Part shown: positions 17,518 through 32,712 of the stretch, piece by piece
Numbering within the stretch: the stretch's first letter is position 1
Layout: every line of letters begins with the position of its first letter
Virus record (IMG/VR): IMGVR_UViG_3300013102_000053
Coordinates: 1-33,482 of that record
Origin: a virus
Direction: 5' to 3' (one strand)
DNA: 33,482 nucleotides
Notes under the pieces: generated by a model
Database searches by the model: none
The model's input: only the letters and a program-made list of their open reading frames with translations
Told to the model about the DNA's origin: nothing
Program-made: the position numbers and the translations under genes

Positions 17518-18798
17518 TTATGGTTTCGTGATTTGGCTAGAAGCCGCGCCATTCAAGGCCTCGGCGGCATTCTGCGAATTTCCGTTTCTAGTCATGGTCG
17601 AGCGGTGAATAAGGCTGAAGCCTTTCGCGTCTAACCATTCATGCCACTTGCTCAGGGCTTCGCGCTTGAGCAGTTCGGCGGATGTGTGGATGTAGGTCTG
17701 CACGTTGCGGGTCATCGTGTGGTTCACCAGCATCTCGCCGATGAGGAAGTCCACGCCGAGGTCAGTCCATCCGGTACGGGCGACCTTGCGCAGGTCGTGG
17801 CTTGTCCACTCGCCCTTCCCTAGCCGGGTGAACACGGCACAGGCCTGGCTGTCGCTGAGGCATCCACCGCCACGCGCGGGGAAGACGAACGCGCCCTTGT
17901 AGCCCTTGGCGGCCTGCCAGTCCCGGTACCGCTCCAGCAGCGCACAGACCTGATGCGTCAGCGGTAGCCGATGCTCGCAGCGGGTCTTGGTGTTCTCGGC
18001 CGGGATGAACCACTCGCCCTGCTCGCCCAGGGTCAGGTGCGCCCACCGAGCCATCCGGGTTTCTCCGACCCGCGTACCGTGGCAGAGCATCATCAGCGCC
18101 AGCATGCAGTCCTGCGGCTCCCGGTCGAACCCGGCGGCCAAGTCCCCGATCACATCCTCGAGCTGGACGGCGCGCAACCGGGAAGGCTTGGGCTGGATCT
18201 TCGCCTTGGTGAAGTCGGTGAACTTGAAGCCGGCGATAGGGTTGGAGCTGATCATGCGCAGCTTCTCGGCCTGCCGGAACGCAACCACCAGCACGCCCCA
18301 CATCAGGCGCACGTAGGACAGCGAGAACTCGGCCTGCATAGGCCACATCAGTTGCTTATCCAGTGTGAAGCGGTCGACCTCCTCCACCAGCAGGTCTCCG
18401 AGCCGCGGCTTCAGGTGGCAGGCGATGATCGAGGTGTTGGTTGATCGGCGCTTGGCCGACAGGCTGCGGTCAACGGCTTGGCGCGCTGTGAACCAGTCGA
18501 GCAACTGGCCGACCGTCTGCAGGGTGCCGGCGGCGGCCGAAGCCTTCGGATCAGCGGCCAAGCGTTCGCGGATCTTCGGCAGCGCATTGATCAACCCTTT
18601 CACCGGCAGCTCCGGGAAGCCGGCGATCTTCTCCCACTTCTTGCCGACCACCAGGTGCCACGTACCGCGCTCGCGATTCTTGTGGAAGCGAAAGTAAACG
18701 CCCGGGTAACGCGCGTCCCGCATGTCCCGGATATCGGTGTTGGCCGATTGCCGGCGGATCTCGGCATCAGAAAACGTGGTCAGCAGGCTCTGGCTCAT
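17518..18798 (-). CDS. Second tyrosine recombinase, inside the early operon
   Basis: 426 residues from ATG 18798, overlapping the RusA stop (ATGA). The C-terminal catalytic domain has the full set: Arg243 in HGTRVGETR, Lys271 in the beta-hairpin, His334 and Arg337 in SHDLRKVAR, His360 in LVNHTMTR and Tyr369 in QTYIH. The N-terminal 90 residues form an arm/core-binding region, and the C-terminal 35 residues are an extra tail. It is unrelated in detail to the integrase at 31573 and is expressed with replication genes, not from an attachment end. Possible roles are dimer resolution, recombination during replication, or remnant of another integrase. Confidence 0.9.
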   Translation of the reverse strand: MSQSLLTTFSDAEIRRQSANTDIRDMRDARYPGVYFRFHKNRERGTWHLVVGKKWEKIAGFPELPVKGLINALPKIRERLAADPKASAAAGTLQTVGQLLDWFTARQAVDRSLSAKRRSTNTSIIACHLKPRLGDLLVEEVDRFTLDKQLMWPMQAEFSLSYVRLMWGVLVVAFRQAEKLRMISSNPIAGFKFTDFTKAKIQPKPSRLRAVQLEDVIGDLAAGFDREPQDCMLALMMLCHGTRVGETRMARWAHLTLGEQGEWFIPAENTKTRCEHRLPLTHQVCALLERYRDWQAAKGYKGAFVFPARGGGCLSDSQACAVFTRLGKGEWTSHDLRKVARTGWTDLGVDFLIGEMLVNHTMTRNVQTYIHTSAELLKREALSKWHEWLDAKGFSLIHRSTMTRNGNSQNAAEALNGAASSQITKP

Positions 18799-25975: not shown

Positions 25976-28057
25976 ATGTCCGCACAACAGAAGAAACACC
26001 CCTTCGATTTCAAAACTCAATACGGACTCGGTTTCAGCACTCAGGACGATGAGATCGTTGTCGACTTCTTCTGCGGTGGCGGCGGCGCCGGTACCGGGTT
26101 GGAGATGGGCCTGGGCCGCGCGGTGAACGTGGCGAAGAACCACAGCGCGGCGGCGATCAGCATGCACACGGTGAATCACCCGGGCGCCGTGCACTACACA
26201 ACCGATGTGTTCGACGGCGATCCGGACACCGAGTGCGGCGGTAAGGCCGTGGGCTGGTTCCACATGTCGCCGGACTGCACGCACCACAGCCAAGCCGCCG
26301 GCGGGCAACCGCGCAAACGCGAGATCCGGAATCTGTCGTGGATCGGCCTGAAATGGGCTGGCAAGAAGAAGCCCCGAGTCATCAGCCTGGAGAACGTGAA
26401 ACAGATACTCCAGTGGGGGCCGCTGATAGCCAAGCGCGACAAGGCGACCGGGCGGGTCGTCACCCTGGACCTGATAGCGCACCCCACCAAGCCCAAGAGC
26501 AAAATCAATCGGGTCGCCGATCTGGGCGAACAGGTGCTGGTGTCGAATCAGTTCCTGGTGCCAGACCCAAAACGCCGTGGCACGACCTGGCGCCGGTTCG
26601 TTCAACTGCTGGAAGGTCTGGGCTACGCAGTCGAATGGCGGGTGCTCAAAGCCTGCGACTACGGCGCGCCGACCAGCCGGGAGCGCTTGTTCATGATCGC
26701 CCGCTGCGACGGCCAGCCGATTGTGTGGCCTGAGCCGACCCACGCGAAGAATCCAGCCAAGGGCCAGAAAAAGTGGCGCACCGCCGCCGAGTGCATCGAC
26801 TGGACGGTGCCGACTAAAAGCATTTTCGGGCGGCCGACTCCACTGGCAGACGCCACCCTGCGCCGAATCGCCAAGGGCATGAAGAAGTTCGTCATCGACG
26901 CGGCTGACCCATTCATTGTGCCGATCGCGAACTGGTCAGGCGAAAGCGTTCAGTCCGCAAACGAGCCACTGCGCACTGTAACGTCTTGGCCGCGAGGCGG
27001 ATCGTTCGCCATGGCCAGCCCGATCATTGCGCCAGCCACGCACCAGGGCAGCGACCGGATCAACGATCCTCACGCCCCGCTGCCGACGGTGACCTGCGCG
27101 AATCGCGGCGAGCTGACGCTGATCAGTCCAGTGATGGTTGGAGCCGGTGGTCCGGCGTACAGCGGCAAACCAGCGTCAGCCGATCAGCCAGTCGGCACCC
27201 TGATGACCCAGAACCACCGCGCACTCGCGGCGGCGCACTTGGTGAAGTTCCGGTTCTCGGACGAAGGAAAGGCGCTCGACGAGCCGCTGCCGACAATCAC
27301 CAGCGGCGGCAACTACCAGCGCCCTGCCGGTGCCGCGCACGCCATGGGCATCTCAACCGTGTTCATGGCCCAGATGAATGGCGGCTTCAACACCACGGAC
27401 GCCAAGAGCGTTGGAGACCCGATGACCACGGTGACGAACACCGGCAGCCAGCAGCAGCTGGTGACGGCGAACCTGGTGCACCTACGTGGCAACTGCGATG
27501 CGCGGGACGCCGGTGATCCGCTGCACACCATTAGCGCCGGCGGCACTCACCACGGGCTGGTCACTGCCTTCATGGAACGCCAGTTCGGCGCCAGCGTCGG
27601 CCAGGGCGTGGATGAGCCAGCACCAACCATCACTGCCGGGGGTGGCGGCAAGAGTTCGCTGGTAGAGCTGCAGCTCTCGCCGGAAGTTGAAGCCGGTGCG
27701 CTGCGGGTCGCGGCATTCCTGATCAGCTACTACGGCACTGAGAACATGAGCGCCGCCGACGCGCCAGCGCCAACCATCACCACCAAGGATCGGCTTGGCC
27801 TGGTCACCGTCACGATCAAAGGCACGCCGTACGTGATCGTCGACATCTGCCTGCGCATGCTGCAACCGGCTGAGTTGTACAAGGCTCAGGGCTTCCCTGC
27901 CGACTACATCATCAGCCATGGAGCCGACGGCAAGCCGTTCACCAAGACCCAGCAAGTGCACATGTGCGGCAACAGCGTCAGCCCGCCGCCGATGGCCGCT
28001 CTGGCACGGGCCAACGACCCGTGGCGCGTTGTCGAACAGCAGGCAGCCGCAGCGTAG
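25976..28057 (+). CDS. C5-cytosine DNA methyltransferase with eight internal repeats
   Basis: 693 residues from ATG 25976 with GAGGA upstream. Motif I VDFFCGGGGAGTG (29-41), motif IV with catalytic Cys101 in SPDCTHHSQ (PDC in place of the usual PPC), motif VI ENV (139-141), motif VIII DYGAPTSRERLF (228-239), and motifs IX-X in LQPAELYKAQGFPADYI and MCGNSVSPPP. Between VIII and IX, where target recognition lies, a roughly 290-residue region contains eight P-x-x-T-[ILV]-[TSM] repeats, spaced 32-49 residues. It probably protects phage DNA from host restriction. No cognate endonuclease is adjacent. Confidence 0.93.
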   Translation: MSAQQKKHPFDFKTQYGLGFSTQDDEIVVDFFCGGGGAGTGLEMGLGRAVNVAKNHSAAAISMHTVNHPGAVHYTTDVFDGDPDTECGGKAVGWFHMSPDCTHHSQAAGGQPRKREIRNLSWIGLKWAGKKKPRVISLENVKQILQWGPLIAKRDKATGRVVTLDLIAHPTKPKSKINRVADLGEQVLVSNQFLVPDPKRRGTTWRRFVQLLEGLGYAVEWRVLKACDYGAPTSRERLFMIARCDGQPIVWPEPTHAKNPAKGQKKWRTAAECIDWTVPTKSIFGRPTPLADATLRRIAKGMKKFVIDAADPFIVPIANWSGESVQSANEPLRTVTSWPRGGSFAMASPIIAPATHQGSDRINDPHAPLPTVTCANRGELTLISPVMVGAGGPAYSGKPASADQPVGTLMTQNHRALAAAHLVKFRFSDEGKALDEPLPTITSGGNYQRPAGAAHAMGISTVFMAQMNGGFNTTDAKSVGDPMTTVTNTGSQQQLVTANLVHLRGNCDARDAGDPLHTISAGGTHHGLVTAFMERQFGASVGQGVDEPAPTITAGGGGKSSLVELQLSPEVEAGALRVAAFLISYYGTENMSAADAPAPTITTKDRLGLVTVTIKGTPYVIVDICLRMLQPAELYKAQGFPADYIISHGADGKPFTKTQQVHMCGNSVSPPPMAALARANDPWRVVEQQAAAA
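26954..27823 (+). repeat. Eight-fold repeat region of the methyltransferase
   Basis: Units contain PLRTVT, PLPTVT, PVGTLM, PLPTIT, PMTTVT, PLHTIS, PAPTIT and PAPTIT (Thr at 334, 371, 408, 440, 485, 518, 551, 600), usually preceded by Asp-Glu/Ala/Gly and followed by a Gly-rich turn and LV/LA-type strand. The regular strand-turn-strand rhythm suggests a beta-repeat structure. Confidence 0.7.
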
Positions 28058-28282: not shown

Positions 28283-28870
28283 ATGCCCACAGAAAACAAA
28301 ACGGCCGAGCCGCTGCCGACATTGGCGACCGGCGCCGCGCTTGATGCATCGACCTGGAACGACTTTGTCGAACGCCTCCGTTATCACTGCAACGGCGCCG
28401 GCGTTAAATGGCACCACACTGCGGCCGCCATTTTCACCGTGCAGACCAAGCGATTCGATTACGGCTACGAGATCGACTACGCGGAAGGCCGAGTTGTCTG
28501 CCTGGAGGATCGGCGCTGGTTCAGTCCGAAAGAATACTGGGAAGACCTCGACGACGAGGAGCGCGCAGATATCGACCAAGCCCTGATGGCTGATCGGGAA
28601 TGCGGCTTCATGGATCTGGACGAGGACGATCAGTGGGAATATCTCGCCGAGTGCGATGACCACACCGTCACCGGCTGGAACAAGCGCTGGGAGATCGTGA
28701 ACAGTCACTTCACCCGGGATGCCGCAGAAGCGTTCATCCGACGCAAGCAGCACGACTACGGCGAAATGCGCGTCTACGTCGAATCGCAGTACTACGCCTG
28801 GGAGTTCGAAGCCATCAAGGAGGCGATCCTCGACGGCACGCTGACCTACACGCCGAAGGAGGCAGCATGA
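28283..28870 (+). CDS. Hypothetical acidic early protein
   Basis: 195 residues from ATG 28283 with AGGA upstream. Strongly acidic with many aromatic residues (RRWFSPKEYWEDLDDEERADIDQAL, DLDEDDQWEYL). No family recognised. Acidic, aromatic-rich early proteins may mimic DNA or bind host factors; no direct evidence here. Overlaps the next start (ATGA). Confidence 0.8.
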   Translation: MPTENKTAEPLPTLATGAALDASTWNDFVERLRYHCNGAGVKWHHTAAAIFTVQTKRFDYGYEIDYAEGRVVCLEDRRWFSPKEYWEDLDDEERADIDQALMADRECGFMDLDEDDQWEYLAECDDHTVTGWNKRWEIVNSHFTRDAAEAFIRRKQHDYGEMRVYVESQYYAWEFEAIKEAILDGTLTYTPKEAA

Positions 28871-29367
28871 TCAACCTCTTCTGGCGCCTGGTCGCCAAGC
28901 TCCTGGCTCGCCCGGCCATCGCCGACTGGCTCATCGCCCGCGCCAAGCTCACCCCGTACCAGCACATCATGTCCGCCGACGGCACCGAGATGTACATGGG
29001 CCGCTGGTGGCTATTCAACGCGTACAGCCGGGAGACGCACAAGCCTGCGCTGTGGTGGTGCCCGTGGTCGTTCCGCATTCACCACATCCTGCGACCGGAC
29101 GAAGACCGGGATCTGCACGATCACCCGTGGAACGCCCGGACCATCATCCTGCGCGGCTGGTACATCGAGCAGCGCCAAATCATGTGGCGCCGTCGAGCGA
29201 CCGGAGAAACCGCCCGCCTCAACCACGGCGAATACCACCGCATCGATCAGGTATCACCTGGCGGCGTCATCACCCTCTTCATCACCAGCAAGTGGCGCGG
29301 TGACTGGGGATTCCTCGTAAACGGCGTGAAGGTGCCTTGGCGCACCTACACCGGCACCGACAACTGA
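28867..29367 (+). CDS. Cupin-like phage protein
   Basis: 166 residues, coupled to the previous gene. Features are SFRIHHILRPDEDRDLHDHPWNARTIILRGWYIEQR, a His/Asp/His-rich cupin motif 1, and later ITLFITSKWRGDWGFLV. This fits a small metal-binding cupin family found in phages of Proteobacteria. Substrate unknown. A hydrophobic N-terminal helix (INLFWRLVAKLLARP) is amphipathic. Confidence 0.82.
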   Translation: MINLFWRLVAKLLARPAIADWLIARAKLTPYQHIMSADGTEMYMGRWWLFNAYSRETHKPALWWCPWSFRIHHILRPDEDRDLHDHPWNARTIILRGWYIEQRQIMWRRRATGETARLNHGEYHRIDQVSPGGVITLFITSKWRGDWGFLVNGVKVPWRTYTGTDN

Positions 29368-31339: not shown

Positions 31340-31573
31340 ATGGCAAAGGTCATTGCCCAAATTACGGCCAGGCTGCCGCGCCTCATGGAGGCAGGCGAAT
31401 ACAGGAAGCTGCGCTACGCCGGCGGTAAGCCGAGTCTGCAGCAGTTGAAAAAATGGATTGAGGAAGGCGAAGTTGTGGGAGAGGTGAAAGGCGGGATGTA
31501 TTTCGTGGATCTGCAGGCGGTTGTGCTGGGGTCGAATGATCCCCTACTCGCCAAGATGATGGAGGTGGGCTGA
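31340..31573 (+). CDS. Excisionase-like small DNA-binding protein
   Basis: 77 residues from ATG 31340 with GGAG seven bases upstream, sharing a base with the integrase start (TGATG). Winged-helix pattern LRYAGGKPSLQQLKKWIEEGEVVGEVKGGMYFVDLQAV resembles Xis/MerR-type DNA-binding proteins that bend attP or attR. Location directly before int supports excisionase. Confidence 0.75.
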   Translation: MAKVIAQITARLPRLMEAGEYRKLRYAGGKPSLQQLKKWIEEGEVVGEVKGGMYFVDLQAVVLGSNDPLLAKMMEVG

Positions 31574-32712
31574 TGGCTCCGCCGCGCGCCAGGACAATCA
31601 AGAACCGGGATCTGCCGGCCAACCTTTACCCGAACGGGAAATATTGGCAGTACAAGAACCCGATCACCGGTAAGAAGACCAGTATCAACAAGCCGATGGC
31701 GGAGGCCATCAAGCTGGCCAACGCCGCCAACGCGAAGTTGCTGCCCCTGCTGGCCGACGACGGCGCGCTGCTGGCAATGCTCACCGGCGAGGCCGCGCCG
31801 AAGTTCAGCGGGTGCCTCGATCGTTTCGAGAAGGAATGGCTGGGCACCCGGAACTATGCCGAGCGGACGTTGAAGGAAATCAAATTCAAGTTGGCTCGAT
31901 ACCGGGATGACCTGGGCGATTTGATGATGGGGCAGCTCGACGTGCTGACCGTTGCCGAATACCTCGACGGATTCGAGAACAACGCCTACACCAAGCACCG
32001 CGGCCTGCTCGTTCAGATATTCGCTTTCGCCGTGGCCAAAGGCTTGTGCGAACGCAACTCGGCCGAGCTCACGCTGGTGAAGAAGGAAGCCGAGAAGAAG
32101 CGTCAGCGCCACACGGTTGAAGGGTTGAACACGATTTTGAATTACGTGGGGACGCCGATCTGGTTGAAGCGCGCGATCCGGCTGGGTTTGCTGAGTCTTC
32201 AGCGGCGGGAAGATATCGTGATGTGGCCAAAGTCGGCCGTTGACCTCGAGCAGAACACCATCAAGGTGTCGCCCGGGAAGACGCAGAACTACGGGAAGCC
32301 GGTGCACTTGGAGATTGCCATGGGCCCGGCGCTGCGCGAGGTAGTCGCGGAGTGCATGCGGTCACCCGTCGTGTGCCCTTACCTGATCCACTACTCACCG
32401 AAGGCCCGGAAACGGTCGCAGCTCGACGCCAAGCTTCACTGGAACGCCGTGACACCCGATTACCTGACTAAGTCATTCGCCCAGGCCCGGGATGACTCCG
32501 AGGCATACAAGGACATGCCGGCCGGCGAGCGCCCCACCTTTCACGAAATCCGGGCACTAGGTGCGTGGCTGTACGAGCAGCAGGGCTTCCCTCAGGAATA
32601 CATCCAAGGGCTGATGGGGCACGCGGACGTCAAAATGACTGAGCACTACCAATCTGGCCATGGTGATGAAGCAATTGTTTATTTGAAAGTAAAGGCCGAC
32701 CTTAATGCTTAG
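31573..32712 (+). CDS. int: Integrase (tyrosine recombinase)
   Basis: 379 residues from ATG 31573. N-terminal arm-binding domain (LPANLYPNGKYWQYKNPITG), SAM-like core-binding domain (about 75-165), catalytic domain with Arg211/212 in SLQRREDIVMW, His324 and Arg327 in TFHEIRALG, His350 in LMGHADVKMTEHY and Tyr359. It lies at the attachment end, pointing to tRNA-Val 714 bases downstream, with an excisionase-like gene before it. This is the phage integrase proper. Confidence 0.95.
   Translation: MAPPRARTIKNRDLPANLYPNGKYWQYKNPITGKKTSINKPMAEAIKLANAANAKLLPLLADDGALLAMLTGEAAPKFSGCLDRFEKEWLGTRNYAERTLKEIKFKLARYRDDLGDLMMGQLDVLTVAEYLDGFENNAYTKHRGLLVQIFAFAVAKGLCERNSAELTLVKKEAEKKRQRHTVEGLNTILNYVGTPIWLKRAIRLGLLSLQRREDIVMWPKSAVDLEQNTIKVSPGKTQNYGKPVHLEIAMGPALREVVAECMRSPVVCPYLIHYSPKARKRSQLDAKLHWNAVTPDYLTKSFAQARDDSEAYKDMPAGERPTFHEIRALGAWLYEQQGFPQEYIQGLMGHADVKMTEHYQSGHGDEAIVYLKVKADLNA

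What the first reader, a model, noticed from the sequence alone, without database searches (positions are those of the whole stretch)
26954..27823. Methyltransferase recognition region built from eight P-x-x-T repeats
The variable region of this C5 methyltransferase is about 290 residues of repeating D-[EAQ]-P-x-x-T-[IV]-T units with Gly-rich turns, far from a typical target recognition domain. Repeats of this kind could be a modular base-reading or oligomeric beta structure and may recombine to change specificity. Catalytic Cys101 sits in PDC, not PPC.
Basis: partly seen in the sequence, partly recalled or inferred. Interest (0 to 1): 0.6.

Follow-up and report, generated by a model that had tools for sequence, protein, structure and literature searches.

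The report
Phage methyltransferase with eight swappable readers
A Pseudomonas-type temperate phage carries one DNA-methylating enzyme whose middle is a row of eight interchangeable target-reading modules, probably letting it mark many different short DNA sites and so hide phage DNA from many restriction enzymes; the principle is known from Bacillus phages, but the size and mix-and-match scale of this family appear undescribed.

Summary
The ORF at 25976-28057(+), 693 aa, is a C5-cytosine methyltransferase. Between motifs VIII and IX it has eight P-x-x-T-[VIL] units (0.45 expected). Each unit is a ~33-49 aa module found by one 39-aa profile (E 6e-11 to 4e-17).

The modules are best read as tandem target recognition domains (TRDs). 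P-x-x-T-[ILV] is the published 'TL' motif of C5-MTase TRDs. Modules behave as cassettes: in 80 relatives with one backbone, slot 3 holds five module types, two modules at once, or none, with in-frame boundaries. Across 287 unique relatives there are 148 architectures of 3-11 modules, and effectively none carries the same type twice (about 56 expected). Type-specific residues fall in two blocks either side of the invariant P/T, like the two recognition loops of M.HhaI. Published tests of family members reported 'relaxed' protection of many sites, which a set of independent readers would explain.

AlphaFold2 did not resolve the modules (pLDDT 22-48), and sequence homology to SPbeta or PDB TRDs is not significant. 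No target has been assigned to any module. The modular, recombining idea is supported; the 'atypical domain' and solenoid ideas are not. Verdict: a large variant of multispecific phage MTases.

The parts
25976..28057 (+). C5-cytosine DNA methyltransferase gene, 693 aa (P0001)
   Evidence: PF00145 E 7.6e-24; phrog_116 E 1.8e-101
26057..26740 (+). Catalytic core, motifs I-VIII (aa 28-255)
   Evidence: AF2 pLDDT mostly 80-97; motifs conserved in 287 relatives
26267..26278 (+). Motif IV S-P-D-C with catalytic Cys101 (aa 98-101)
   Evidence: SPDC invariant in the family
26906..27013 (+). Module 1, type M7 (aa 311-346), first position almost only
   Evidence: i-E 7e-11; slot 1 in 113 of 114
27014..27127 (+). 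Module 2, type M12 (aa 347-384)
   Evidence: i-E 6e-11
27128..27229 (+). Module 3, type M13 (aa 385-418), hypervariable cassette slot: M13/M3/M23/M36/M15, M3+M13, or absent in relatives
   Evidence: i-E 1e-11
27230..27349 (+). Module 4, type M8 (aa 419-458)
   Evidence: i-E 3e-13
27350..27463 (+). Module 5, type M1 (aa 459-496)
   Evidence: i-E 4e-12
27464..27562 (+). Module 6, type M10 (aa 497-529), replaced by M21 in L042, L057, L050
   Evidence: i-E 4e-17
27563..27667 (+). Module 7, type M2 (aa 530-564), replaced by M59 in L050
   Evidence: i-E 1e-14
27668..27706 (+). 13-aa spacer before the last module (aa 565-577), helix in the model
   Evidence: low confidence; similar spacer visible in Pseudomonas and Acinetobacter relatives
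27707..27811 (+). Module 8, type M9 (aa 578-612), normally last, next to motif IX
   Evidence: i-E 2e-14; slots
27812..28003 (+). Motifs IX and X (aa 613-676)
   Evidence: QGFP at aa 638, GNSV at aa 665; pLDDT mostly 88-96

Best explanation
It is a multispecific C5-cytosine methyltransferase: one catalytic core serving eight tandem target recognition modules. Each module has a scaffold strand, a first type-specific loop, the TL motif (P-x-x-T-[IVL]) and a second type-specific loop, and reads its own short cytosine-containing site by presenting it to the shared active site. The phage thereby methylates many sites with one enzyme and evades many restriction enzymes. Modules are gained, lost and swapped as cassettes between phages, so the architecture is an inventory of protected sites. 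Shown here: core family, module boundaries, swapping, non-redundancy, purifying selection on every module, and the two-block pattern of type-specific residues. Inferred: that each module reads a separate target, and the anti-restriction role.
For: (1) Modules are real: eight profile hits, E 6e-11 to 4e-17. (2) P-x-x-T-[ILV] is the TRD TL motif, consensus (YFW)X(RK)X5P(STCA)PT(ILV)(TASV)X5-16H; domain swaps in multispecific Bacillus phage MTases used it (PMC2413257). The last T lies 37 aa before QGFP, inside the published 10-50 aa. (3) Cassette exchange: same backbone with slot 3 as M13, M3, M23, M36, M15, M3+M13 or empty, in frame. (4) Non-redundancy: 0 of 147 architectures repeat a type against 56 expected by a slot-aware null, minimum 44; the one apparent repeat, L107, is a single module split by an insertion. 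(5) Unit positions 8-19 and 30-35 are mostly conserved within types and differ between types (between-type 2.1-3.4 bits), either side of P24/T27, as M.HhaI recognition loops 233-240 and 252-258 flank Thr250 (PMC4090504; PMC2413257). (6) All eight modules are under purifying selection, omega 0.02-0.16, core 0.05-0.10. (7) P. [quoted passage not shown] Pyei1_p05, reported ~69% identical (PMC6536676), has eight modules. ARM81mr_p29 and ARM81ld_p31, also reported as relaxed (PMC5537653), have five each.
Against: No module is tied to a target. The module profile has no significant match to the SPbeta MTase TRDs or to any solved TRD. Only 79 of 1338 distinct modules fit the strict P(STCA)PT(ILV)(TASV) core, though 996 fit P..T(ILV)(TASV); module 3 reads PVGTLM. 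AlphaFold2 gave no usable model of the modules. Phi2LM21_p23, a relative, was inactive in E. coli (PMC5537653). JCM7686_0772 itself was not read here, only its relative Pyei1_p05.
Confidence: 0.8

Rival explanations
1. A single low-specificity methyltransferase: the repeats together form one composite DNA-binding surface that methylates many cytosine contexts weakly, so the 'relaxed specificity' reported for relatives is true promiscuity and modules only tune affinity.
For: Published assays call relatives 'relaxed' and report only partial protection (PMC3925955; PMC5537653).
Against: Module types are strongly individual, with type-specific blocks conserved within types, never repeated within a protein and exchanged one at a time at exact boundaries. 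Protection of several defined sites is equally expected from several readers.
Confidence: 0.12
2. A structural repeat (solenoid or oligomerisation scaffold) that does not itself read bases.
For: Regular 32-49 aa repeat with Gly-rich turns; no significant match to known TRDs.
Against: It carries the TL motif of TRDs at the TRD position between motifs VIII and IX; diversity lies in two blocks around the TL motif; natural family members with two modules exist (pBS72) and module number varies 2-11, which a fixed scaffold would not easily allow.
Confidence: 0.04
3. Only the last module, next to motif IX, works; the others are decaying remnants of past insertions.
For: Last-position types are related and constrained to that place; one module can be lost cleanly (L036).
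Against: All eight modules have omega 0.02-0.16, comparable to the catalytic core; reading frames stay intact across 148 architectures.
Confidence: 0.04

Closest known systems
Multispecific C5-MTases of Bacillus phages (SPR, phi3T, rho11, H2, SPbeta)
   Same: One C5-MTase core with tandem TRDs between motifs VIII and IX, each carrying a TL motif, giving several specificities against host restriction (PMC8936443; PMC12707154; PMC2413257). SPbeta MtbP, read here, has two P-x-x-T-[LV]-like sites.
   Different: Those have few TRDs (two to about five, from memory); here 2-11 modules with 37 recurrent types and 148 architectures. Core motif IV is SPDC rather than the FPC of SPbeta. Module sequences are not detectably related to the SPbeta TRDs.
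'Relaxed-specificity' m5C MTases of Paracoccus, Aeromonas and Sinorhizobium prophages (JCM7686_0772/_2655, Pyei1_p05, ARM81mr_p29, ARM81ld_p31, Phi2LM21_p23)
   Same: Same family where checked: Pyei1_p05 has eight modules, the ARM81 proteins five; Pyei1_p05 is 32% identical to the window protein over 27-680.
   Different: The passages read describe relaxed specificity and do not mention module architecture.
CmoX, phage cytosine C5-carboxymethyltransferase (8YF3)
   Same: Phage C5-MTase fold, found by profile and fold search.
   Different: CmoX candidates are defined by SPPC plus R350 (PMC12783734); this family has SPDC.

Membership tests
C5-cytosine DNA methyltransferases (PF00145) | Overall family profile above the curated threshold | tested here: met
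   85.2 bits against a cutoff of 22
C5-cytosine DNA methyltransferases (PF00145) | Motif I F-x-G-x-G-G, motif VI ENV, motif VIII R-x-R, motif X GN-x-V | tested here: met
   across 287 unique relatives
C5-cytosine DNA methyltransferases (PF00145) | Motif IV Pro-Cys dipeptide (nucleophilic Cys) | tested here: inconclusive
   Cys present, but the residue before it is Asp (S-P-D-C), invariant in the family; PC as the usual form is from general knowledge
C5-cytosine DNA methyltransferases (PF00145) | Transfers methyl to C5 of cytosine | not testable with these tools
   Published activity only for relatives (PMC3925955)
Multispecific C5-MTases with tandem TRDs | More than one TL-type TRD between motifs VIII and IX of one core | tested here: met
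   Eight modules; TL consensus from PMC2413257
Multispecific C5-MTases with tandem TRDs | TRDs exchangeable as units | tested here: met
   Natural cassette swaps, one deletion, one double occupancy
Multispecific C5-MTases with tandem TRDs | Each TRD confers its own target | not testable with these tools
   Indirect only: non-redundancy, type-specific blocks, many sites protected by relatives
Multispecific C5-MTases with tandem TRDs | Sequence homology to the TRDs of the Bacillus phage enzymes | tested here: not met
   hmmsearch best domain E 0.035 with no full alignment; hhalign probability 0.2%. Hence 'works like'; common descent of the TRDs not shown
CmoX carboxymethyltransferases | SPPC motif | tested here: not met
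   SPDC; CmoX definition from PMC12783734
CmoX carboxymethyltransferases | Conserved R350 binding the carboxymethyl group | not tested
   position not mapped onto this family
Solenoid or oligomeric beta repeat | Regular repeat fold | tested here: inconclusive
   pLDDT 22-48 over the modules in two models

The most novel reading that the evidence does not exclude
The modules form a readable code: each of the ~37 recurrent module types recognises one fixed short cytosine target wherever it occurs, from Bacillus plasmids to Pseudomonas, Myxococcus and Roseburia phages, so a phage's methylation pattern and restriction immunity could be predicted from module order, and the 'relaxed specificity' reported for these enzymes is the sum of discrete specificities.
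Probability: 0.55. Interest if true: 0.78.

Novelty: new variant of a known kind. Interest (0 to 1): 0.62.

Why it matters
If right, a widespread family now annotated only as 'DNA methyltransferase', with relatives described as having 'relaxed specificity', is a combinatorial anti-restriction device. Its modules offer a natural library of short-site DNA readers on one scaffold, with natural swap, deletion and two-module forms ready for testing. Decoding even a few module types would let methylation targets, and the restriction systems a phage lineage has met, be read from sequence, and would give exchangeable parts for cytosine methylation tools.

Tried and rejected
AlphaFold2 of the window protein on a 70-row alignment and of a four-module relative on a module-registered 113-row alignment: cores good, modules unresolved, so no structural claim is made. 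Profile comparison of modules with SPbeta MtbP and the PDB: no significant match. Reading targets from the published N-TL/C-TL trimers (PMC2413257, e.g. SRN/GRQ for GGCC): by eye the modules do not fit the NNN-x10-TL-x3-CCC trimers, so no target is assigned. CmoX-type carboxymethylation: rejected on the SPPC criterion. One duplicated module type (L107): rejected as one module split by an insertion. Type 'M38' (CDGQPIVWPEPTH, five proteins) is a false profile hit next to motif VIII, so a few module counts are one too high. My fetches of the founding multispecific-MTase papers PMC450048 and PMC1171429 failed, so details of those enzymes beyond the quoted reviews are from memory. The dN/dS test used 12 of the 42 same-architecture sequences, those in register by a simple anchor.

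Full report
WHAT IS THERE. The window is a 33,482-base virus record. Its tail, head, terminase, integrase, replication, anti-repressor and repressor genes mark a temperate tailed phage. The ORF at 25976-28057(+) encodes 693 aa and is a C5-cytosine methyltransferase (PF00145 E 7.6e-24; phrog_116). Between motif VIII and motif IX there are eight P-x-x-T-[VILM] sites, against 0.45 expected from composition (maximum 4 in 20,000 shuffles). An iterated 39-residue profile built from relatives finds all eight as whole modules (i-E 6e-11 to 4e-17; profile consensus ALVAAFLVKYYGGSRDGGQDLDEPLPTITAGGHHALVTA).

THE MODULES ARE CASSETTES. In close relatives most of the protein is 80-100% identical between sequences, but identity falls to about 0.5 over residues 388-417, which is module 3. 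Among 80 proteins with this backbone, slot 3 holds M13, M3, M23, M36 or M15; three proteins hold M3 and M13 side by side (9 modules); one (L036) has slot 3 missing in frame. Slot 6 is M10 or M21 and slot 7 is M2 or M59. DNA alignment shows the change confined to the cassette.

SCALE. From 358 loci in viral contigs and annotated phages I took 287 unique proteins. Clustering their 1,994 modules at one threshold gives 111 types, 37 with at least five distinct sequences, in 148 architectures of 3-11 modules. A two-module form of 431 aa exists on Bacillus plasmid pBS72. Relatives occur in Pseudomonas, Burkholderia, Klebsiella, Vibrio, Agrobacterium, Paracoccus, Myxococcus, Roseburia, Gordonia and Mycobacterium phages and in plasmids. 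Types cross this range: M3, M4, M5 and M6-like modules are in Myxococcus phage Mx4, Roseburia phage Jekyll or Bacillus plasmids. Between proteins whose cores are 40-60% identical, module sets hardly overlap (Jaccard 0.03-0.05) while shared types stay about 60% identical.

NON-REDUNDANCY. No architecture contains the same module type twice (0 of 147, against 56 expected when modules are drawn from the same relative positions, minimum 44). The one apparent case, L107, is a single M3 module split by an insertion. The result holds at tighter clustering and weakens only when types are merged broadly (1 of 146 at 0.6, 7 of 145 at 0.65, against 70-76 expected). The null ignores shared ancestry of architectures, so its size should be read loosely. 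Repeats that act as structure should tolerate duplicates; readers of distinct targets gain nothing from them.

ANATOMY OF A MODULE. Within a type, positions 8-19 and 30-35 are mostly well conserved, and between types they differ strongly (between-type entropy 2.1-3.4 bits). P24 is fixed, T27 nearly so, and V37 varies little. Published work gives the TL motif of C5-MTase TRDs as (YFW)X(RK)X5P(STCA)PT(ILV)(TASV)X5-16H and reports that residues on either side of it contact the target (PMC2413257). M.HhaI has two recognition loops, 233-240 and 252-258, flanking Thr250 (PMC4090504; PMC2413257). The modules have the same order: variable block, P-x-x-T-[ILV], variable block. The strict P(STCA)PT core is met by only 79 of 1338 modules, the looser P..T(ILV)(TASV) by 996. 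All eight modules are under purifying selection (omega 0.02-0.16; core 0.05-0.10; 12 sequences).

FUNCTION. [quoted passage not shown] I did not obtain their sequences, but Pyei1_p05, reported about 69% identical to them (PMC6536676), has eight modules of this kind. Two Aeromonas phage enzymes reported as relaxed (PMC5537653) have five modules each. I therefore infer that 'relaxed specificity' is the sum of several discrete readers, and that the enzyme protects phage DNA against many restriction systems, as reviewed for Bacillus temperate phages (PMC12707154). Neither step is shown here.

WHAT COULD NOT BE SHOWN. AlphaFold2 resolved the core but not the modules in either of two models. Module profiles have no significant match to the SPbeta MTase or to solved TRDs. 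So the claim is that these work like tandem TRDs; common descent with the Bacillus TRDs is open. Motif IV is S-P-D-C throughout the proteobacterial family, which excludes CmoX by that family's SPPC criterion (PMC12783734); the meaning of the Asp is unknown.

NOVELTY. Multispecific phage C5-MTases with tandem TRDs are known. In ten full-text searches (open-access library only) I found no description of this family's module architecture, its swap-and-delete series or its non-redundant type set. I rate it a new variant of a known kind.

Noticed in passing
window 17518-18798 (-) and 31573-32709 (+): Two different tyrosine integrase genes in one 33 kb phage record (phrog_1 E 2e-47 and 2e-34).
   Followed up: no
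window 28867-29364 (+): Small ORF matching phrog_4786 'cysteine dioxygenase' (E 2e-45), one gene downstream of the methyltransferase.
   Followed up: no
window 26267-26278; relatives: Motif IV is S-P-D-C in essentially all proteobacterial relatives and S-P-E-C in two Gordonia phages and one Mycobacterium phage, in place of the usual Pro-Cys; functional meaning unknown.
   Followed up: partly
L107 protein, M3 module: An M3 module carries a ~35-aa insertion with two CxxC pairs, zinc-ribbon-like, inside the first variable block.
   Followed up: no
L082 57-1487: In phage phiC725A a gene annotated as PAPS reductase (DndC) lies directly upstream and an adenine methyltransferase directly downstream of the modular methyltransferase.
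   Followed up: no
L376 2977-4272 and 6401-7051: Bacillus plasmid pBS72 has a two-module form (431 aa) with a gene annotated as restriction endonuclease 2.1 kb downstream.
   Followed up: partly
L377 1813-2886: A second, very different gene annotated as DNA cytosine methyltransferase, with no modules, sits directly upstream of the two-module one on Acinetobacter plasmid pAS23-1.
   Followed up: no
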